This document shows, piece by piece, positions 36,351 to 49,168 of a stretch of DNA of 64,000 bases (its first letter is position 1; each line of letters opens with the position of its first letter). A model generated the notes under the pieces. The model was not told where the DNA came from, ran no database searches, and saw only the letters and a program-made list of their open reading frames with translations. The position numbers and the translations under genes are program-made. This stretch comes from Chalara sp. BL73 (Eukaryota > Ascomycota > Leotiomycetes > Helotiales), in the NCBI GenBank assembly GCA_918026815.1, contig CAKJVC010000010.1:2606501-2670500 (forward strand), written 5' to 3'.

Positions 36351-37877
36351 TGTTAATAATGTTTTCTTCGGCTTGGTTTTGGGTCCTGCCTCAATCTTTC
36401 CAAAGCTGCTGTTGCCTCGTAAAGGACCTCGAATGGTTTATGCTCCCTCTTTCTTATTGGTAGAGGTTCTAACTTAGCATTTACCCCGTGTTGTCATTCT
36501 CCTTCTGTGGGATTTAGAGTGGGGTGGGGATAGAGCTAAGTGTAGCAAACCAGGAGAGGATTTTGAACTGCCGACCTTCGCATTGTTAAAGAGATGGCAC
36601 TAGACATAATTGACGCTTCGAAACAGCGTGTCGATTGGGATACCAGCTAGTTCGCTTAGTAGCGAAGTGACACGCCGGTGTCCTTTATGCTTTGCCCTAG
36701 CCTGGTATATGACTCGTAGCTATACGGGTATTTCCGTTTTCTCTGTGGCGGCGAACTCGAATTTTTCGAATAAGTTCGTAAGAAGTGTAGAAAGTTCGTC
36801 AAATCCACACCTCTTTTGAATGATTAGCGCGGACATAGTGTTGAGTACGGGATTGTCGGAGTGTTTTGAGAGATGCTCCCCTTTATGTACCGTCTTTAAG
36901 TACCGTCCACGTTTTGTAATTTAAAGTTTGTCATGTAAATTTATGTCTTTTTCGTAATAAAGCTGACAGTTGCTAAATATTAACAGCAATTTTTATCCTG
37001 CTATTTTAAATGTTATGTCCTTTCATTAATAGATACTGCAATTTCTTTAATGTTATTGATTTAAAAAAAATTAAAAAATTCATGACCAAGTGCAACCCGC
37101 CATAAACTGTACGCCTATTTGTGGCTGAAAGTTTAAAAAAACGTCAAATTGGCGAGGGCTTAACCCACCATAAACTGTACGCTAACTTGTGGCTGAAAGT
37201 TTAAAAAACGTCAAATTAGCGAAGGCTTAACCCACGTGGTTGTCCGTTTCCCTGCTAGCGAAGCCATCCCAACCGGACATCAAATAGGTCGCTTAGCCTC
37301 CGCTTAGAAGTCTTAGCGTCGCTGTACAGCATGTTAATTTGTTCATCATGCAAGTATGGAGGAAAACGTGGCTTTCAAGGCGCAATTGTGGAAATGAAAA
37401 GTCGCGGGAGGCTTTGTCCGTGATCGCAAGATATCAATTGCCTAGCCGACACCAGTCAGCAGCATTTCGGCCTTTCGGAGAAGCAAGATATAGTAGTGTA
37501 TCTTAGTCTCTTAGCGCATTATTATTACGCATTAGGTTGTTGATACGACATTTATGGCGTATATGCCTGGGTATCTGACCTTTTAATTCCGTGCTGATTT
37601 ATCCCTCGGTTTCCCGCTTCTACGTTCGGCGGCTTACCACAGAGTAACCATAAAGTGATGGCACTTTTAATTCGCAACCTAGGGAAAATATCCACGTTTT
37701 CCCAAGTCTGGATGCTAAGGATAAGACGCGGCAAGAAAGCTTATTATATGGATGTGAACTTGCCGATTTCAGCAGATTTCGCAGCTATATGTAGATAGGA
37801 ATGTGCCCTTAAACTGGTCGATTTCAACTCTGTAGTGAAGCAATCTTGTGCCAAACAACAACAGCTACTCATTAACA
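36351..37877. other. Gene-free stretch upstream of the GH74 gene
   Basis: Contains the tandem repeat at 37095-37235 and otherwise nothing recognisable. The last few hundred bases should include the promoter of the GH74 gene. Confidence 0.45.
37095..37235. repeat. Tandem repeat, about 67-68 bp, 2.1 copies
   Basis: Units start with ACCCRCCATAAACTGTACGC at 37095 and 37163, and a partial third copy (ACCCAC) starts at 37230. The copies differ at several positions. No function is evident. Confidence 0.8.
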
Positions 37878-40446
37878 ATGAAGAGCCTTCAAGCGCTTTC
37901 ACTTCTCCTCGCAGTCGCGCATAGTGAAGCTGCCTTTTCTTGGAATAATGTTCGTCTTGGTGGCGGGGGAGGTTTTGTTTCTGGCATTGTATTCCATCCC
38001 AAAACCCAGGGAGTAGCATACGCCCGTACGGATATAGGTGGCCTCTACAAACTTAACTCAGACGATAGCTGGAGAGCTGTAACGGATGACATCACTCAAG
38101 ATGGTACCTGGTACGTGAACATCTCGGTTGGTAAGAGATTTACGACTAACATCATTTAGGCATAACTGGGGCATAGATGCTTTGGCTCTGGACCCACAGA
38201 ATGCACAAGTTGTATACGCCGCCTTGGGAATGTACACGAACTTCTTGTAAGTGTTGCCTATTTATCTATTAGCCAGTTTGACAACAAGTTGACAAGTAAT
38301 CTTCACGCAGTGACAATGGCAACGGCGCCATTGCAAAAAGTACTGACCAGGGAAGCACGTGGTCCGTTAGTAACCTTCCGTTCAAGGTTGGTGGAAACAT
38401 GCCTGGTCGAGGCACTGGCGAGCGCCTCGCTGTTGACCCTGCGAACTCGAATATTATCTACTTCGGGGCTCGTAGCGGCCACGGCCTTTGGAAATCTAGC
38501 GACGGAGGAGTAACGTTTTCGAATGTCGCTAGCTTCACTAACACAGGAACTTTTCGCCAGAACCCTTCTGATCCCTCAGGATACCAAAGTGACCTTATGG
38601 GTTTGCTCTTTGTTACCTTCGATAGTACCTCGCCCACTGTTAACGGAGCGACGTCTCGCATCTTCGTTGGGGTTGCAGATAACGTCACTGCGTCTATCTA
38701 TGTGTCAACAGACGCCGGGTCTACCTGGTCACCTCTAGCAGGACAACCTACAACATTTTTCCCGCATAAGTGCAAATTACAGCCTATACAAAAGTCACTC
38801 TATCTAACCTACAGTAATGGAATGGGTCCGTATGATGGCAGCGACGGCGCTGTGTGGAGATATGACTTGACAGGCGGTTCCTGGACAAATATCACTCCGG
38901 ATATTGGCCAAACACTCTACTTCGGCTTTGGGGGACTCGGAGTCGATATGTTAAAGCCGGGTTATCTTGTGGTGGCTTCCTTGAACTCGTGGTGGCCTAA
39001 TGCCCAACTGTTCCGCTCGAATAATTCGGGTGTTTCTTGGAGCCCTATCTGGGAGTGGCACTGGTATCCAAATACGACTGACCATTTCAGTGTATCGGTG
39101 AGTCCTAAGTCTTCAAACCCTTGCCACTTATCCTGTAGAAGATTGATAGAATGCTACTATCAGGTTGCAGTTTGGCTAACAGCTTATAGAGCCCGAACGC
39201 CCCTTGGATTAAAAACAGCTACTGGGACAATGGGGAAGACAAAGATTTGGGGTGGATGATTGAAGCTCTTGAAATTGATCCGTTTGATAGCAATCATTGG
39301 CTCTACGGGACTGGCATGACTGTCATGGGAGGTCACGACCTAACTAGTTGGGATTCTTCGCATCATGTTTCTATCACGACTTTGGCCGACGGCATTGAGG
39401 AAACTTCTATTCAGTCGCTAGTATCTGCCCCAGGTGGTTCTGAGCTACTTGCCGCTGTTGGTGATATTAGCGGCTTTACCTTCTCATCAGCAAGCAGCCT
39501 CGCAACTGCGCCGTCGTACAATTGGATGAATCCAAAATTCGCTACAAGTACCGATGTTGACTATGCTGGGCAAAACGTGGCTAAGGTCGTAAGGTCGGGA
39601 AACGGCAAGGGTACACAGCAGATTGGAATCTCTAATGATGGTGGAATTACATGGAGGTATGTGAATCCTATGTCAAGCCTTTGTGTTCCCCTCCTTTCCT
39701 CTCATACTATAACATTAGCTATTAGTTAATTTGACCATTGTTACAAGAGCAATGCTGACTTGAGTATTGGACAGTACTCACTCTGGAGCAAGCACTACAG
39801 CCTACGGCGGGACTGTGGCCTACTCTGCTAGCGGTGACGCGATTCTCTGGTCCACGGCTAACGAAGGAGTCCTCCGTTCTCAGAATATTAATACCTTCAC
39901 TAGCGTATCAAGCTTACCTTCCAACGCTCTTATCGCTAGTGATAAGCAGAATTCCAACTATTTCTACGCTGGGTCTAGCTCAAATTTCTATATATCCTCG
40001 GATAACGGTCAGTCCTTCTTCTCGGGGGGGTCTCTAAGCGGCGCTAGCCGTATTAACTACGTCATTGCCCATCCGACCACCGCTGGACAAGTCTACGTGA
40101 GTACAAACGCCGGTATCTATATGTCCACCAACTTCGGTAGGAGCTTTATGGCATTGACTACTGCCTTAACTAATGTTTCTCAAATCGCCCTCGGTGTCGG
40201 CCCTGGCTCCACGTGGTACCTCTACGCCTTCGGCGCTGGATATAATGGTAACAAGCTTTACGGCAGCGCAGACAATGGCAATTCATGGACTGATCTCCAG
40301 GGTGCCCGGGGCTTTGGCCAAATAACACAATGTAAACTTACGGGCAGTGGCAACGTTGCCGGTCAGGTCTACGTGGGGACCAACGGGCGTGGTATTTTCG
40401 TCGCCCAAGGGTCAATTATTGCAAGCACAAGTACAGTACCAACCCC
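37878..40446 (+). pseudogene. GH74 xyloglucanase: 5' part of a gene split by the hAT element
   Basis: Exons 37878-38110, 38160-38246, 38311-39097, 39190-39656 and 39775-40446 join in one frame. Residues 1-18 are a signal peptide. The rest is a GH74 double seven-bladed propeller with BNR-like repeats (STDQGSTW, STDAGSTW, SADNGNSW). YARTDIGGLYK holds the conserved catalytic Asp (residue 52), and SASGDAILWS is the equivalent of the second acidic site. Such enzymes are secreted endo-xyloglucanases or reducing-end oligoxyloglucan hydrolases acting on plant cell walls. After the linker STSTVPTP the frame enters the transposon and stops at 40490-40492. A complete GH74 domain could therefore still be made, with about 14 transposon-encoded residues at its end. 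The original gene continued at 46688. Confidence 0.8.
40439..40446. repeat. Left 8-bp target-site duplication (CCAACCCC)
   Basis: CCAACCCC immediately precedes the left terminus TAGACTGCG and recurs exactly after the right terminus at 46680-46687. Eight bases is the target duplication length of hAT elements. Confidence 0.9.
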
Positions 40447-40454
40447 TAGACTGC

Positions 40455-40610
40455 GAACTGGGGTCCCACGGGGCGGGTTTTCACCTACTTGACCCCACCC
40501 GTCGGGGTCCCACCCCATGGGTTGGGGTCTATCAAAAGCACCCACCCCACCCCATGGGGTCTTGATGGGGTGCCAAGCACCCATTACATTTACACGTGAC
40601 ATTACAATAG
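40455..40610. repeat. Left G/C-rich subterminal palindrome array
   Basis: Repeated ACCCCATGGGGT-, GGGGTCCCAC- and GGGTTGGGGTC-type words on both strands. The right end (46543-46672) has the same vocabulary. Subterminal arrays of short repeats are the usual transposase-binding regions of hAT elements. Confidence 0.75.
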
Positions 40611-40791
40611 TTGCTGTACAGTTAGAGAAGTTATACTAATAAGTCTACTAATCAAAAGCTACGCGACATAAACGTATTAAAATTTTGGTTTGTGAATTTT
40701 ATTATGTGCTTAGCGCCCTATCGCTAGCGTGTATACCTTTAATAACTCCATTGCTTAACCCATTTCCTTTGTATGAACTGCGTTTGATTCT

Positions 40792-41342
40792 TTAACACCG
40801 GCCTGGGTACTTGTAGCCCGTCATTCCCTCTCTCATTCTTTGAACCAAATGCATATCCTTTACTTGAATAGTAACTCTCTTAGCGTGGATTGCGGCAAGA
40901 TTTGTGACTTTAAAGTAATATTAGTATAAATATTAGTATAATGTATTTATATGAAATAACTTACGCTCGAACTCAGCTACCAAAGCAGATTCTGCGGCTT
41001 CTTGGAGACATTGTAAAGCACTAAGTTGAATGCGAAATGCGTGTCGAGACGTAATATCATACATTATTTCCCCTAACTAGTCGAGTAAATGGAGCTTTTG
41101 GGATTAAAAGCTCAGTGCTTTTTTGGTATCGTTTGATTTCTCTAAGTGCTTTGGCTACGTTTAAATGTTAGTTTTATACTAATTATTATATTAATCAACT
41201 TACTGCCAGGTTTCAATCGATATTTCTTCTTTGGTACAGCTTTTGCAGAGGTTTTAGCAGAGGTTTTGGCAGAGGTTTTGGCAGAGGTTTTGGCAGAGGG
41301 TTTGCGAGCAGATTTGGTAGCTATTTTCTTGGTACGTGCCAT
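40792..41342 (-). CDS. Histone H3-type protein encoded inside the hAT element
   Basis: Minus-strand exons 41342-41204, 41154-40965 and 40907-40792 carry a full-length H3 of about 147 residues. The tail starts MARTKK like canonical H3. After Met removal K4, A7, K9 and S10 fall on canonical positions, followed by five SAK units. The fold follows: [20 protein letters not shown], then [15 protein letters not shown] (alpha-N/alpha-1), then [12 protein letters not shown] (alpha-2) and [15 protein letters not shown] (alpha-3). Loop 1 plus early alpha-2, counted from REI to LQE, has 19 residues, as in CENP-A, not 17 as in canonical H3. The canonical C-terminal RRLRGERS is replaced by an unrelated tail ending in Cys. 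One extra G in GGGG (41070-41073) breaks the frame after LVR. This may be a sequencing error or a real lesion. Both introns contain the element's TATACTAAT-type motifs. Confidence 0.85.
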
Positions 41343-41865
41343 TGTAACCTATTAAGATTAGAATAAATATTAGTATAATACAGAATAATATGTACCTGTG
41401 CAAAGTCGCAAATTATTTTCAGAAAAGGTGAAGGTGAATGTGAATATTGACACGTGAAATTGAAATTATAGCTTTGTGATTTCGACGAGAAGACTATAAA
41501 GAATTAGTATAATGATTAATATAAAAATAGAATATAAAAAAGATAAATATAATACATACTTGTGTATGGTGTAGTTGTTGGTAAATTTAATTGAAGGTTA
41601 AAAGAAGTCAGGTTTAAAAAAAGTAGTTGGATGCCTTAAAATCGAGGCATAAAAACGCGACTGCCTTATTTTTCAGGATAACGCGTACTTTTCCCTCATT
41701 CATTCTTTTTGCACCAACTTATTAAATCTGAACAAAGTCAAACATCTATCGCAGTACGTGTTTTTGGTGTATTATATTAATCTTTATACTAATTTTTGAA
41801 GCTCTAGTTCTTGCGAGTTGAAATTTGCAAAATACGCCTACTTTTCGGTTGCGTTACTTTCCAAT
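41343..41865. promoter_or_regulatory. Divergent intergenic region between the H3-type gene and the SIM protein gene
   Basis: About 520 bp of AT-rich DNA separates two divergent start codons, so it must hold both promoters if the genes are expressed. TATACTAAT-type motifs occur here too. No specific factor site is claimed. Confidence 0.4.
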
Positions 41866-43171
41866 ATGGCTTCACCTTTCGAAAAGCAACCTCCTCAGGT
41901 AATTTTTATTGAAATATTATATTAATCTGTATACTAATCGGTTTCAAGGATATCATTGTCATTTCTGATGATTCAGATCATGAATTTGATATGGATCTTG
42001 ATTCCTCGCAGCAAATCGGTTCTTCCAATAAACGCAAGCGCAAATCTCCGGGCAGTTTTTCTACCAATGTGCATACTGTTAAAGCTAGAAGAAGACTTGA
42101 AGCTATAAAAAGCAACAGTATTCAAAATCAGATCGAAAAAGCGAAAGCCGCAGATCAAGCAGCAATTACATACAGAAAAAAAGTACTCAAAAAGTCTGCC
42201 GAATTTGCACTCGCATCTGTTGCCGAGCAGAAGCGAATGATTGAGCAGTCTGCTTTGCAAGTTAGAACAAAGCGGTTCGTTTAATTTTGATTATACTAAT
42301 TTTTATACTAACCTGTATAGTGAACGAGATGGCAAAGATTGGAAATCTGTGGCAAAAGCTTTGGGTTATGGAGAAATTGGTGGCCTATATGCAATTGATG
42401 ATGATGGAAATCCAGCATGGGAAGATATTGAGTATGAATCGGAAGACGAATACGAGTTTGAGCATATGTGGAGATTGAATGAAAAGCAAAACGGTGATAA
42501 AGCAGTTGTCGGCAAATCTGCTAAAGAGTTGAAAAATGACGGGATTGCCAAGCATAAACGATCCATTTTAGTAAGTTTCAGATTAATATAATGATTCGTA
42601 TAACGCTAATACAATTTCAGGATGCCAAAAAGCTTGAATTTAAGTTTTGGCAAAGAAAATGGCGCCGAAGCCGTCGATCTTTGTTCCGCAAAATCCGAAA
42701 GCTTGCTGCTGGTGGACAGGAATACTTGGAAAGAACAAGCTGTCCTTACATTTACAAGAAGTACAAATTTCTACTAATTTTTATACTAATCTGCTAACTG
42801 ATATAGCAAATTCTATGCGTATAAAACTCCTGAAAGATACTTTACTCAAGGAGAAAAAGGCAATTTGGAAAAATCTTGCAGCATGGGCATACGGAAATGA
42901 AGAGTGGATCGATCTGCCGGGCCCTGCAAATTGGTGGCCAGCCGACGATAAGTTAAATGACACAGGATTCGGCTTCTCCGATTCGTTGACAGGCCATAGA
43001 GAAGCGTTTGATATGGTATATGCTACGGAAATTCCGGAAGATGGATCATACGAACGTATTTTCCCCGCTTATAATGATTTGTTTTTGATGACAGACAATT
43101 CTTTAAGTCAAACAATCGTTAAAGCATTCTTTGGTTTACAAAGCAGCTTTCAAAAGCCGCGTAAGCTGTAA
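41866..43171 (+). CDS. Accessory transposon protein with SUMO-interacting motif and NLS
   Basis: The first three exons are well supported: 41866-41898, 41949-42274 and 42321-42570, each ending at a GT donor and in phase. The product starts MASPFEKQPPQ then DIIVISDDSDHEFD, a hydrophobic core followed by acidic residues, which is the classic SUMO-interacting motif. KRKRK follows (a likely NLS), then a Lys/Ala-rich helix and an acidic region (EYESEDEYEFE). From 42621 the likely coding frame (NTWKEQAVLTFT, LLKDTLLKEKKAIW, IDLPGPANWWPADDK, stop 43171) is one base out of phase with the splice. Either a +1 lesion, a missed splice site or a separate start at ATG 42622 is involved. No known domain was recognised in the body. 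A chromatin or SUMO-dependent role in transposition is inference. Confidence 0.6.
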
Positions 43172-43373
43172 ATGTATATGTAGTTTTTAAGTATATACAA
43201 CAAATGAAGCAAGGAACTTTAAGCAGATATATTCAATTTTATACTAATCTTTATACTAATCATTATATTTTACATTAATTTTTGGAAGTTTAATTATAAC
43301 CTTTAATATGTACAATTTTTTGGAAGTAGTAATTTAACTTGTGTTTAAATACTTGTTTTTTCTTTCCGATTTG

Positions 43374-46222
43374 ATGCTTTTTTTTTTTACTTGCACACTT
43401 TTGTTGCTATGGAGTCAAGCAATTCGCAAGACTTTTTCTGATCCTTTTAGCTCATTTGAGCCAAATACTTCTGACAATTTACTATTTTCGCAAATTGGTC
43501 CAAAAAACCTATATTTTCGATGGGAACTCGAATATCACGATAAGTTTGTTGAATGGTGGTTAAGTACACAATGGGCAGTTCAAGCAGTTGCAAACCAATC
43601 AATTGATTTGGTAAAGCAATTAAATTGGAAATCTCAAAATCGAAAATCTATTGCTTGGAAACAATTCGATCAAGGAATACACCGGATCACCGGAGAGCCT
43701 AAAGTCATATGTCAAAACTGCAACAAGGTTCTCGCACATCCAAATACGCGGAATACCGGCACAAAAGCTTTGTCTGGTCATATAGCGTCTCGGCAATGCT
43801 TTGTTTATTCTAGCCAAAGTAATACAAGGCAGAAAAAAGTGGAAGACATGTTTCACGCTATCTCTGTAAGTAGATTAGTATAAATATTAGTATAATGTCT
43901 AATATTAATAGCAACCAATCTTTACGAAGCAAGCATTTCACGACCAGGTTCTTGCAACTATTGTTTCACTTCGTACTTCTTTCCGCGCAGTCGAAAATCC
44001 TGAATGGAGAAAGCTAGCTGTTATGCAAAATCCAAATTTCGAACTTCCTTCTGCAACAACTATGAAGAATCGACTAATGGAACAATCAGTCAAACTTGAA
44101 CAGAACATGCTTTCAAATGTTGTTCCTGGAAGCAAAATTGCAATTTCTCTTGATTGCTGGTCTAGTACAACAAGACTATCATTTATGGGTATAATAGCTC
44201 ACTATATTGATAAGTCATGGGTTCTTTGTCAAGAATTAATAGGATTTGAAAGTTTAGTAAACGTTCATTCCGGAAATGCGCTTGCTCAAGTTGTCAATAA
44301 CGTTTTTCAACAGCACAATCTTTTTGATCGTGTTGTTTCAATTACAACTGATAATGCGAGTTCGAATACTACAATGGTTCTCGAAATCAACGGATACTTA
44401 CAAGAAGCTTTGAAAGCTAATAGTATTCTAAAAAAGAAAGTCCAACACGTGCCGTGTTTATCGCATGTGATTCAGCTTAGTCTTCAAGCACTTTTGGGCT
44501 TTGTTCAATTGAGGCCTACTAACGACACATTTGTTCGGAATTGGGTAGCAGAAAAAGAGCTGTCTGATCTTGAGAGAATCAAAGCTAGTGACAAACGTGG
44601 TATTCCATATATACTAGCAAAGGTATGTAACACGTGACTTTTATACTAATTTTTATACTAATCTTATATTAGATTCGAAAGCTTGCTATTCTTGTTAATT
44701 CCAGTGCACAGCGGAAACATCGATTTCAAAGAGTTCAACAAGAACAAATCAGAGATTCATCTTCTCCGAATGATCCAGTTCTTACATTGTTAATTGATGT
44801 ATGCACTCGATGGGACTCAACAGTGCATATGATTCTTCGTGCATTGCGTCTTAAAGAGTCTATCAATCAATTTTGCAGTGCATACGATCCTGCTAAGCCT
44901 TTTTCTTTTTCTGCATTAGAATGGAAAAAACTTGGCTATTTGGCCGATTTGTTACGTCCTTTCAATTTTTTTACAACAACAATCGGCAAAACAACAAGCA
45001 TAACATTGCCTTATGCTTTATCAATTTACGATGAATTGTTTGAACACTTGCAAGAATCTCGCCGAGTATTAACCAAAAAGTCTGTTGCTCAACTTTGGGT
45101 AAAAGATTTAATTGGTGCGATTAACGCTGCAGAAGCCAAGCTTGATACTTACTATAACAAAACATATAGTAGTCTTGGTAGTTTGTATGGCATCGGAGCA
45201 ATTCTTGATCCAAAATCGAAGCTAAAATGCTTTGAAGAAGATTACTGCTGGCTTAATTTCAAAACAGTTGATTGGGCCAAAGAATTTGAGCGTCAATTTC
45301 GGTCGTTATACGATACGGAATATAAAGAAAAGTCTACGAATGCTGACCGACTTTCTCAAATTCGAGAAGTTAATCACGACCCTTTAGCATTGGCATTAAG
45401 TCGCAAGCGCTTTACTCGAGACATTCAGAACCCTTATCGCAAAGATGATGACTTTTCTCCTTCTGAAATTGATGAATGGCTGGCTATGAGTATGTTTACA
45501 ATTCTACTTTTTATACTAATTTTTATACTAATCTTTGTGTTGTTTTTTTAGAGCCTGATAATCGATCACCGCTACTTGTTTGGAAATCGCTTGAAACACA
45601 GCTTCCTGGCTTATCAGCAATGGCTAGAGACTTACTTTGTATCCCGATGGCCGGTGTTGGAGTAGAACGTGCTTTTAGTTTTGCACGTGATATATGCGGA
45701 TATCGCCGTGGCCAGCTTCAACCGACAACTATTCGGTCGCTTCTTTTGGTTTATCATTCGCTCGTTGAACATTCACGAACACGTGAGCTTCAAAATCTAC
45801 TATTTTCAACTATTAATATCCAGGATATGACACTTGAAGATATGGAAACGGAAATTAAAACGCGAGAAAATGATCTTGAAGTCCAACTTGATCAAATTGA
45901 TCTTTGGGAAAATCATTACTATATTAGTGATGAAGAACCAGAAGGAAACGAAGAAGTTCGAACTCGTCGTGCTCAAGAACGCTGGGATTACAAGATTTCT
46001 AAATCTTTACGTCAATCAATTCATCAAAATCAGCCACTTTCGACTACTCAGTTTCAAAATACACTTAGGAATCGCCGCGAACCGTCAATTGAAACAACGA
46101 ACTGGGAACTATCTAGTAATAGTAGTCAAGAGCTGCCTCGACTTCCGACTCCTGGTATTGGTAATATTGTGCCGGATACTCCAATAGGCATTCACAGGTC
46201 AAAAAAGCAAAAAAAAAATTAG
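43374..46222 (+). CDS. hAT-family transposase (BED finger, hATC dimerisation)
   Basis: Exons end at 43865, then 43912-44622, 44673-45489 and 45552-46222, all in frame. Near the N-terminus is a BED-type zinc finger (WKQF, CQNCNKV, then HIASRQC). The RNase-H-like core has the two Asp motifs ISLDCWSS and TTDNASSN. The C-terminal hATC domain is present (PLLVWKSLE, IPMAGVGVERAFSFARDICG, RRGQL, RSLLLVYHS). An acidic region and a basic end (KKQKKN) follow. The true start is uncertain. In the open frame the first Met is at 43374, but it gives an unnatural hydrophobic leader. ATG 43409 gives a natural N-terminus (MESSNSQDFF) but needs one base removed near 43435-43440. The protein cuts and pastes the element by binding its ends. 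Confidence 0.88.
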
Positions 46223-46542
46223 TTTTAGAATATTAGTGTTGTATTATTATAATTCACAATTTTTTCCACTCTATTACAATATGTTTAGATTTAACATTTG
46301 AAGTTTAATTTTTATACTAATTTTTATACTAATCAACCACTTTGCATTTCAAGTACTTTTGTAAAAACAAGTATACAAAATAGCCTTGTTTAACCTGTGT
46401 GCACATAGAAAAATCAATGCCAAAACTGGAAAGAATCATCTCGATACTAGAATACCTCGTATATTTTTAAAATTCCGCCAGTCCGCCCTACATTCTTGTA
46501 GAGGAGTTTGACTGTAGTTTCTATATTTAGTTAATCTTATCG

Positions 46543-46672
46543 GGGCCCCATTGAGGTCCCGCGGGTTGGGGTCAAAATATACAACCCACCCCACGGGGGA
46601 AGCGAGCCTCGAAGACCCGACCCACGGGGTCCCATGGGTCGGGGGCCCCGGCCCGCCCCGTGGGTTTCTGCG
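46543..46672. repeat. Right G/C-rich subterminal palindrome array
   Basis: Inverted counterpart of the left block, with CCCACCCCACGGGG-, ACGGGGTCCCATGGG- and GGGCCCC-type words up to the terminal CGCAGTCTA. Confidence 0.75.
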
Positions 46673-46679
46673 CAGTCTA

Positions 46680-46687
46680 CCAACCCC
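46680..46687. repeat. Right 8-bp target-site duplication (CCAACCCC)
   Basis: Exact copy of 40439-40446, directly after the right terminus. It encodes Pro-Thr-Pro in the host linker. Confidence 0.9.
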
Positions 46688-49168
46688 TACTCCAACACCA
46701 ACCACATCATCACCAACTACAACTCTACCAACAACAACACCAACAACAACAACGCCTCTAAACACCACAACTGTAGGTGGTGGCGCAACTATCTTCATCC
46801 CCCCCGGCGTTTTTGTTGTTGTTGGTGGCCCGGGGGGTGGTGTCGTTGTTGTAGGCGGTGTGCCAGAGACCATTGCTCCTGGTGAAATAGAAACAGTTAC
46901 AAATGATACCCCGACTTCAACTCCTCCAAGTACGAGCCCAACTTCAACGACTACGACTACAACGACCACGACTTCTACCTCGAGTTCAACGACTTCAATT
47001 TCAACTCCAACAGAAACTCCATCTCCATACATAATCTTCCCTATTCAGGATATTAGCCAATCACAAGTAACAACCTTCCAGACAGAACTTGAACAAACCA
47101 TCGGAGCACTTAATGTGGCCATCTATGAAAGCACTGATGGTAGTTGGGTTTTCTGGACTGCGAAATTGAACTCCACGCAAGTGTCTGCGGTTGCTGCCAA
47201 CTCAGCTGTAGGTCCCCGGTATCTTTTCTTTTTTAATTTTGATCAAAGTGTACTCGCTAATGCCAATCAGGTCGGTTCCGTAGCGCAAGACAGGCCAGTT
47301 GCTCTGTTTGATACTCCCGCCGACATATCCACCACAGAGGAGTCTGATGAAGAACTCTCTCTCGACGAAGAACTTCGGAAGAGGGACGGACTCATTATCA
47401 CGCAGACCGATGCCACGAAAGAAACCCAAGTTATCTCGCAGTCATATGGCTCTCTTATAGACACCGTCTCTTCATATAGATATGATTCAACAGCGGGATC
47501 AAGCAGCACGATCTACATCATGGACACTGGCGCGAATATTCAAAATCCGGTAAGTAAAAAGTTCTCAACTCAATGACAAGATTCTAACCAAAAGAAGGAG
47601 CTAGCCAATATCGGGGGATCGGTGCGCTGGCTATATGCAACCGCTAACGACCAAACTCCCACCGATGAAAATGGCCACGGATCGTGTGTGGCATCAAAAG
47701 CTGTTGGTGTGAAGTATGGAATCGCAAAGAACGCAAATTTGGTTATCGTTAAACTTGGATTTCCATTCGGCGTATCAAACATTCTATGGGCGTTGCAACT
47801 GATTATCCAAGACGTCCAGACTAGGGACTTAAAAGGAAAGGCAGTGATTAACATGTCTCTTGGAGGTAAGCAGCCAACTAAGGGCTCTAACGTGTCTAGC
47901 TGGGGTGATTGACTTTTATTTTCGCAGATCCCTGGCAATTTACGGACACCACTACACCAGGAACTTCAGAGTTTCTGCTCGATCAACTTTATAACAGAAT
48001 GTCTCATTTATTGATTCAACAAGATGTTGTGATCGTGTGCGCATCTGGAAATTTCAGGGTAAGTATACAGTTAGTTGACAGCTTCATAAGGATATTCACT
48101 GACAAACAACCTGTTAGACTGAAAACGCACAAACAGGGACGGTGTTTAGTGATGATGTTACAACATGGCCGTCCTATTTTGCAAGGCAGAGTGTCTCGTA
48201 TGCTGCGCTTCCGCTTATCGTTGTCGGCTCTGTTGACAACTATGGCACCCGGTCCAGTTTCTCTCAAGGAACGGATATACTGACAACTTCGGCCCCTGGT
48301 ATTAATATTGAATGCGCAAGCAAGGAAGATACTGGAACTCAGCAACTGAATGGAACCTCCTTTTGTATGTTTATGCCTAGTTTATCTCCCCATCACTCAG
48401 GAAAAGGTGCATAAGCTAACTACACAAACAGCTGCCCCTGCAGTTGCTGGTCTTGCAGCATACTTCTTGTCTATGACGTATTATGACGGCTTCTTGCAAC
48501 GCCCCAATCAGGTCGCTTCACAAATGCAAATCCTTATCAACGGGTGGTCCTGGGTCCGGGAAGCTAACGGCCCGAAGGTTGCTTGGAACAACATTGGGAA
48601 TACAGGATTTTGCCTAAACTCCGGCATATCTAAACGTGATGGGACTTCCTTTGATGGGTCATTTGACCAAACAACCTGCCCATCATCCTCAACATTGATA
48701 GCGATATCAACAACACCGCCAACAGAATCAGCAACCGCCACGGCAACCTCAACTCCAACCCCAACACCACCAGCAAACAATGACTGCCAGGCAAATGTCT
48801 TAAATATAAATAGTCAAGTAGTCGCCTCCGGATGCATGCCCAAGAGTGCCTATGCTCTTTTGGTTGATCAAATTACTAATAGTGTTTATGGGGTTAACAC
48901 GACTGATTTCTGTGGTTTGACAGGCACTGGTCTCCCAGATGGTTACAGTGTTCAAAACGGGGGACTTTGCTCAGCAATCAACTGCTTTGCCATTATAGTA
49001 GATAATGCTAGCAGCGCAGAGCTTGGTAGCGCATGTATGGCTGGTAATACCATAACCACTATTAACGGCAATGGGGTTAACTATAACATCGGCGCAAATG
49101 CCGCTTGCGAATTTGTTGGAAGCACACTGCCGAGTAGCCTCAGCTTGCTAAATGGAGGACCTTGCTAA
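46688..49168 (+). pseudogene. Subtilisin-like (S8) protease: 3' part of the gene split by the hAT element
   Basis: The frame of the GH74 linker continues exactly here once the element and one duplication copy are removed. The exons (to 47549, 47598-47865, 47928-48058, 48118-48364, 48432-49168) remain in phase to the stop. Domains in order are a Thr/Pro/Ser linker, a Gly/Val-rich hydrophobic patch (VFVVVGGPGGGVVVVGG), a second Thr/Ser run, an I9-like propeptide region (about 47020-47200) and the S8 domain. The S8 catalytic residues are Asp in YIMDTGA (47522), His in NGHGSCVA (47676), the oxyanion Asn in ASGNF, and Ser in GTSFSAP across the last intron. A Thr/Pro linker and a Cys-containing C-terminal region of about 130 residues follow. 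There is no own signal peptide or start, so it is probably unexpressed in this allele. Without the element the whole gene would encode 1,496 residues. Confidence 0.8.

What the first reader, a model, noticed from the sequence alone, without database searches (positions are those of the whole stretch)
40792..41342. Histone H3 gene carried as cargo by a hAT transposon
Inside perfect hAT termini, antisense to the transposase, is a three-exon gene for a full-length H3-type histone. The tail begins like canonical H3 (A-R-T-K4, K9-S10 in register), but loop 1 to alpha-2 has 19 residues between REI and LQE, the CENP-A/CenH3 length, against 17 in canonical H3. [12 protein letters not shown] also looks CenH3-like. 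A mobile element that makes its own H3 could mark its own chromatin, evade silencing, bias insertion or affect centromeres. I know of no described hAT element with a histone gene. The function is inference.
Basis: partly seen in the sequence, partly recalled or inferred. Interest (0 to 1): 0.97.

Follow-up and report, generated by a model that had tools for sequence, protein, structure and literature searches.

The report
Transposon carrying its own histone H3
A fungal jumping gene of the hAT type carries a gene for an unusual histone H3 at all 27 places where it was found in this genome; similar elements are already known from other fungi, and the changed tail of this histone is predicted to resist the chemical mark that silences transposons.

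Summary
Window 40447-46679 is a 6,233-bp hAT element (9-bp perfect TIRs, 8-bp TSD) with three genes: an H3-type histone, a protein of unknown family, and the transposase. I found 27 distinct insertions in this genome; 27 of 27 have perfect TSDs and hold both histone and transposase sequence. The histone frame is open in 3 of the 15 young loci as assembled. The window's own copy is broken at a homopolymer, perhaps by assembly error. Older copies are RIP-mutated. The histone is neither canonical H3 nor CenH3: it groups with five other fungal proteins (99/99). hAT elements with an H3 gene are already published (Pyrenophora 2013, same three-gene plan; Mycosphaerellaceae 2019), so this is a new member of a known kind. 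New here: all nine modelled introns, both H3 introns included, carry a 12-bp-spaced ATACTAAT pair; and the histone tail keeps K4, K9 and S10 but has lost R8, T11, G12, G13 and K14, residues that matter for K9 methylation or silencing in Neurospora. I infer an anti-silencing histone; this is untested.

The parts
40439..40446 (.). target-site duplication CCAACCCC, left
40447..40455 (+). left terminal inverted repeat TAGACTGCG (9 bp perfect), start of element
40792..41342 (-). histone H3-like gene (H3L), three exons; frame open in copies C178, C51, C133, broken as assembled in the window
41155..41203 (-). H3L intron 1 (49 nt), with box pair in reverse orientation to the gene
40908..40964 (-). H3L intron 2 (57 nt), with box pair
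41067..41070 (.). homopolymer run whose length differs from the open copies; H3L frame of the window copy is broken here as assembled
41343..41865 (.). 523-bp spacer between the divergent H3L and gene 2, with three box pairs (41357, 41503, 41774)
41866..43171 (+). gene 2, unknown family, five exons, 370 aa in open copies; window frame broken as assembled near 42854
41899..41948 (+). gene 2 intron 1 with box pair
42275..42320 (+). gene 2 intron 2 with box pair
42571..42620 (+). gene 2 intron 3 with box pair, reverse
42761..42806 (+). gene 2 intron 4 with box pair
43409..46222 (+). hAT transposase gene, four exons, 884 aa in open copy C133; window frame broken as assembled near 43433
43866..43911 (+). 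transposase intron 1 with box pair, reverse
44623..44672 (+). transposase intron 2 with box pair
45490..45551 (+). transposase intron 3 with box pair
46671..46679 (-). right terminal inverted repeat, end of element
46680..46687 (.). target-site duplication CCAACCCC, right

Best explanation
This is a three-gene hAT transposon whose own histone H3 variant is present beside the transposase in all 27 insertions found, and that histone is predicted to enter nucleosomes with host histones and to resist H3K9 methylation, which would weaken the silencing of the element. Shown: the element, its ends, its target duplications, histone and transposase sequence in each of the 27 insertions, open frames for all three genes in one copy (C133), RIP-type mutation in the older copies, a DIM-5-type Pre-SET/SET gene in the host. 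Inferred: that the protein is made, that it joins nucleosomes (histone-fold contact residues are kept), that its tail (R8T, T11A, G12R, G13K, K14P with K4, K9, S10 kept) is a poor substrate for the host K9 methyltransferase or acts partly dominantly against silencing, and that the element gains by it. Also inferred: the ATACTAAT pairs in introns and spacers are sites for an element-encoded DNA-binding protein, which could bring the histone to element DNA.
For: 27 of 27 distinct insertions carry H3L and transposase sequence and perfect 8-bp TSDs. C133 copy: transposase 884 aa, H3L 147 aa and gene 2 370 aa, all open. Bisporella sp. PMI_857 has a 143-aa relative at 90% identity. H3L groups with five other fungal proteins, apart from host H3 and CenH3 (99/99). 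Core residues H113, R116, T118, K122, D123, L126 are kept in 6 of 6 H3L proteins, K115 in 5 of 6. An AlphaFold model of the Bisporella protein, of low confidence, has the four H3 helices and matches nucleosomal H3 best. Both H3 introns carry the same box pair as the seven introns of the other two genes and lie elsewhere than the introns seen by eye in host H3 and CenH3, which argues for long residence in the element. In Neurospora R8A and G12P abolish DIM-5 activity in vitro, T11A greatly reduces it, and several mutant H3 genes beside wild-type H3 reactivate a silenced transgene (PMC3248561). Host Pre-SET and SET domains in neighbouring frames of one locus. In Pyrenophora the H3L of the element is transcribed (PMC3538342).
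Against: No expression data for this element. Tail loss may be drift, as Manning et al. suggest for Pyrenophora. R8A beside wild-type H3 gave little or no loss of DNA methylation in one assay, and K14R did not affect DIM-5 in vitro. K9-S10 is still there; relative P0045 keeps R8-K9 and P0032 keeps one ARKS. H3L does not stop RIP: the older copies are heavily mutated. A RIP-mutated copy whose H3 start codon reads ATA moved afterwards (L026 and L027 share all 87 substitutions at two sites), so H3L in cis is not needed for movement. 12 of 15 young loci have an H3 frame broken as assembled.
Confidence: 0.38

Rival explanations
1. Passive cargo: a host H3 gene was caught between the ends of the element long ago (transduplication, the published reading for Pyrenophora and Pseudocercospora) and rides along with no function, its tail drifting.
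For: Published view. The tail is far less conserved than in canonical H3. A copy without an H3 start codon still moved.
Against: Core of the protein kept in six fungal H3L proteins. Relative at 90% identity in Bisporella. No full copy without H3 among the 27 insertions found; the one H3-less derivative found has no transposase match either. H3 introns share the element's own box pair.
Confidence: 0.32
2. Transposition factor: H3L builds special nucleosomes at the box pairs or at target sites and helps the transposase to reach donor or target DNA.
For: 15 box pairs spread over the element, 0 in 200 simulated elements, 1 in the 57.7 kb outside; exact 8-mer absent from coding exons. The peptide stretches NPIILIFILTYIK and FNFYTNIYTN at the places of transposase introns 2 and 3 in related transposases P0121 and P0122 (51 and 54% identical over part of the query) fit the same box read through unspliced (my back-translation).
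Against: No protein is known to bind the boxes; in 6 of 9 introns they could serve as branch points. The 27 TSDs show no evident common sequence (judged by eye).
Confidence: 0.2
3. Centromere variant: H3L is a CenH3 carried by the element and acts at centromeres.
For: Loop 1 is two residues longer than in H3; [10 protein letters not shown] stretch shared with S. pombe Cnp1.
Against: Tree separates it from the host CenH3 and Cnp1; the ARTK tail with K9-S10 is H3-like; the same interval differs among true CenH3s (20 residues in the host's, 23 in Cnp1).
Confidence: 0.04

Closest known systems
H3L-carrying hAT element of Pyrenophora tritici-repentis (Manning et al. 2013, PMC3538342)
   [quoted passage not shown] near-identical copies (10 long and 16 short in the reference); H3L neither H3 nor CenH3; insertions in the H3L tail.
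   Different: 5.6 kb against 6.2 kb; Dothideomycete against a host whose nearest H3L relatives are Leotiomycetes; a 2.3-kb recombinant form is described there; little RIP there, strong RIP in older copies here. Sequence similarity between the two elements could not be tested.
H3-carrying hAT elements of Pseudocercospora fijiensis and relatives (Dhillon et al. 2019, PMC6710886)
   Same: hAT ends with 8-bp TSD, H3-like sequence inside, RIP.
   Different: About 9.5 kb, one or two intronless H3-like copies, all element copies inactivated; here one H3 gene with two introns and some open copies.
Fungal H3-like proteins P0001 (Bisporella), P0027 (Tricladium), P0032 (Pseudogymnoascus), P0040 (Clarireedia), P0045 (Talaromyces marneffei)
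   Same: Group with the element histone (99/99); share EFE[LM]T and KDM.LV.
   Different: Their genomic setting is unknown here; tails differ.
hAT transposases P0121 and P0122
   Same: 51 and 54% identity to parts of the window transposase; peptide traces that fit the same intron box.
   Different: Fragmentary, organism unnamed; no view of a histone gene.

Membership tests
hAT superfamily transposon | 8-bp target-site duplication | tested here: met
   27 of 27 distinct insertions (one pair of ends lies on two contigs, C73 and C53)
hAT superfamily transposon | short terminal inverted repeats | tested here: met
   TAGACTGCG, 9 bp perfect
hAT superfamily transposon | hAT dimerisation domain PF05699 | tested here: met
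   1e-09, 38.5 bits over the cut-off of 21.4
hAT superfamily transposon | BED zinc finger | tested here: inconclusive
   no Pfam hit; a Cys/His cluster is visible by eye only
hAT superfamily transposon | catalytic DDE residues | not tested
   hAT-like RNase-H fold below cut-off; residues not assigned
H3L-hAT of the Pyrenophora type | transposase, central ORF and H3-like gene between TIRs | tested here: met
   against the description in PMC3538342
H3L-hAT of the Pyrenophora type | H3L neither H3 nor CenH3 | tested here: met
   tree
H3L-hAT of the Pyrenophora type | sequence homology of the three proteins to the Pyrenophora element | not testable with these tools
   no Pyrenophora sequence among the hits shown (120 of 7,647 listed; 11; none, with a flawed query)
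Pseudocercospora-type H3 hAT | intronless captured H3 transcript | tested here: not met
   two intron models of 49 and 57 nt, needed for the 147-aa frame
CenH3 / CENP-A | groups with CenH3 | tested here: not met
CenH3 / CENP-A | longer loop 1 | tested here: met
   19 against 17 residues
Canonical H3 | ARKS at K9 and K27 | tested here: not met
   0 ARKS motifs against 2 in host H3

The most novel reading that the evidence does not exclude
H3L-carrying hATs are one old lineage of histone-armed transposons across Pezizomycotina, not repeated accidental captures: the element makes a histone that keeps K4 but has lost the K9-methylation module, and an element protein bound to the 12-bp-spaced boxes in every intron and spacer brings it to element DNA, building private nucleosomes that the DIM-5/HP1 silencing machinery cannot mark.
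Probability: 0.17. Interest if true: 0.9.

Novelty: new member of a known kind. Interest (0 to 1): 0.56.

Why it matters
If the inferred mechanism holds, this would be a transposon that fights silencing by supplying its own nucleosome part rather than an enzyme or inhibitor. It extends the published H3L elements to a host outside the Dothideomycetes, as judged from the nearest relatives, and offers two concrete hooks that I did not meet in the parts of the earlier papers that I read: a tail that lacks residues DIM-5 needs, testable with an existing Neurospora reporter, and a repeated box in every modelled intron.

Tried and rejected
CenH3 identity: rejected on the tree. Capture peculiar to this copy: rejected, 27 of 27 insertions carry H3L. 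C53 as an H3-less full copy: rejected; its right end has the TSD of the C73 copy and its left part breaks off at element position 2013, so it is the other half of that insertion or a misjoin. dN/dS among copies of this genome: not useful; in the ten old rows scored (L025-L034, nine loci) 76-387 of 86-396 substitutions are C>T or G>A. Gene 2: no protein relatives (flawed query, see below) and no Pfam family over its cut-off. Structure model: mean pLDDT 66, used for the fold only.

Papers: the first searches gave one unrelated paper, none and none. The prior art was listed. Searches were meant to find further such reports: 78 listed only the same two papers, 79 listed two others (PMC7530617, PMC3778014) that I did not open, nor two of the five (PMC8616336, PMC12030055); PMC4994206 was looked at in passages and only cites Manning et al.. 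The library is open-licence only, so other reports may exist.

Counts and rows dropped: a 61-bp match on C85 was not counted; C6, C17/C18/C135 and C183 repeat other loci and were merged; L037 and L038 were not scored codon by codon (H3 interrupted); L024 and L035 were not in the RIP count. Whole-genome searches score only the best candidates, so 27 is a lower bound. The five relatives in the tree were chosen by eye from the 120 listed of 7,647 hits; how many more belong is unknown, and the tree's bootstrap had not settled. The automatic loop counts for P0027 and P0040 are a script slip and are not used.

Full report
What is there. The window lies in an unnamed 58.66-Mb genome in 199 contigs. 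Between 40447 and 46679 sits a 6,233-bp element with 9-bp perfect inverted ends (TAGACTGCG) and the 8-bp duplication CCAACCCC on both sides. It holds, left to right, a histone H3-like gene on the minus strand (40792-41342), a gene of unknown family on the plus strand (41866-43171) and a hAT transposase gene (43409-46222; PF05699 at 1e-09). The histone, read from an open copy, hits Pfam Histone at 8.7e-30. Introns are GT-AG models; there is no RNA evidence.

Copies. H3 DNA, transposase DNA, left ends and right ends were each searched in the whole genome. After merging contigs that repeat one locus (C6 with the start of C7; C17, C18 and C135; C183 with C127) and pairing the two halves C73/C53, there are 27 distinct insertions. 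All 27 have H3L sequence and transposase sequence, and 27 of 27 have perfect 8-bp duplications. One 0.7-kb element (C127, repeated on C183) has the ends and a perfect duplication but no match to the H3 or transposase queries. These are lower bounds: only the best candidates are scored.

Is the histone intact? There a homopolymer run at 41067-41070 differs in length and the spliced frame stops after 78 codons. Gene 2 and the transposase of the window copy are also broken at homopolymers. Among the 15 young loci H3L is open in 3; the other 12 carry one or two single-base homopolymer indels. These may be assembly errors. The window, C178 and C51 copies differ from one another over 6.2 kb by five single-base homopolymer indels and one substitution. 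For two of the three pairings of the broken sites (H3 with transposase, gene 2 with transposase) all four combinations of states occur among near-identical copies; for H3 with gene 2 three of four were seen. One locus assembled twice (C17, C18) differs at 0 substitutions and 11 internal indel columns, nearly all in homopolymers, over 3.5 kb. That nine young loci share the window's H3 state leaves a real subfamily possible. C133 has all three genes open: 884, 147 and 370 aa.

Age and RIP. Against the open copy L018, ten old rows (nine loci) carry 86-396 substitutions over about 2.4 kb, of which 76-387 are C>T or G>A. Of 10 old loci scored by codon, the H3 start codon reads ATA in 8, is missing in one and stays ATG in one, which has a deletion. 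Two old copies at unrelated sites with their own duplications (L026, L027) share all 87 substitutions: a mutated copy moved again, presumably with transposase supplied in trans.

What kind of H3. In a 16-row tree the element protein, Bisporella P0001 (90% identical) and Tricladium P0027 form a group (97/95) inside a set of six (99/99) that excludes canonical H3 and the CenH3s (bootstrap rough, rows chosen by me). The host has its own H3 (L001) and a CenH3 (L002, grouped with S. pombe Cnp1), whose introns as seen by eye lie elsewhere. The host is probably a Leotiomycete, judged only from the nearest protein names. Whether it has a further H3L gene outside the element was not settled (one search failed).

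The box. ATACTAAT, allowing one mismatch, occurs in the element as 15 same-strand pairs spaced exactly 12 bp, against 1 pair in the 57.7 kb outside and 0 in 200 simulated elements. Each of the nine modelled introns has a pair, six in the gene's direction and three against it; six more pairs lie in spacers; the exact 8-mer is absent from coding exons. Two related transposases read unspliced in databases (P0121, P0122) show peptides at the matching intron places that fit the same box at the same spacing (back-translation, my inference). Both H3 introns therefore look like the element's own, which speaks for long residence. Branch-point use alone does not explain the reversed pairs; the 5' leader of H3L may hold a further such intron (by eye).

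The tail. Canonical ARTKQTARKSTGGK reads [14 protein letters not shown] here: K4, A7, K9 and S10 stay, R8, T11, G12, G13 and K14 are changed, and no ARKS remains. Bisporella shows the same five changes. Among the relatives P0045 keeps R8-K9 and P0032 has one ARKS. In Neurospora (PMC3248561; abstract, outline and passages seen) R8A and G12P abolish DIM-5 activity in vitro, T11A greatly reduces it, G13M reduces it slightly, K14 changes act downstream, and several such H3 genes placed beside the wild type weaken silencing; R8A beside the wild type gave little or no loss of DNA methylation in one assay. The host has a Pre-SET/SET gene of this type and four pieces matching C5 DNA methyltransferase, the best with two stops inside. 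Hence the proposed mechanism: an H3 variant that enters nucleosomes and cannot be K9-marked. The steps after the sequence are inference.

Prior art. Manning et al. 2013 (PMC3538342; abstract, outline and the first of two parts of section 20 read) describe a 5.6-kb hAT element of Pyrenophora with transposase, central ORF and H3L, 10 long and 16 short copies in the reference, with H3L ESTs, and call it transduplication. Dhillon et al. 2019 (PMC6710886; parts 1-4 of 7 read) describe H3-like sequence in hATs of six Mycosphaerellaceae, about 9.5 kb and intronless in P. fijiensis, all element copies RIP-inactivated, and found their hATs not similar to the Pyrenophora one, which speaks against a single lineage. 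So the present element is a new member of a known kind. Whether it is homologous to the Pyrenophora element could not be tested.

Noticed in passing
L026 (C27:94983) and L027 (C17:24075): Two insertions at unrelated sites share all 87 substitutions, mostly RIP-type: a RIP-mutated copy transposed again after RIP.
   Followed up: yes
L063 (C127:1034500-1035340), repeated as L064 (C183): A 0.7-kb element with this family's ends and an 8-bp duplication but no match to the H3 or transposase queries, MITE-like.
   Followed up: partly
L059 (C53:13800-18800): Contig C53 joins the element from its position 2013 on to unrelated sequence, while its right end has the duplication of the C73 copy: misassembly or rearrangement.
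   Followed up: partly
window 41949-41978, start of gene 2 exon 2: Gene 2 protein has near its N-terminus DIIVISDDSD, which resembles a SUMO-interacting motif (recalled, not from a call).
   Followed up: no
window 37848-40490 and 46680-47576: The element sits beside or in a gene with weak sortilin/Vps10-type matches (9e-08 and 0.0012, both below the Pfam cut-off), followed on the right by a Thr/Pro-rich frame with no Pfam match; perhaps one interrupted gene.
   Followed up: partly
P0027, residues 1-17: The annotated start of the Tricladium histone (SIILVRSIILIFVVTK before MAKTK) fits an ATACTAAT-bearing leader read through, as in the window element; a weak hint that this gene too lies in such an element.
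   Followed up: no
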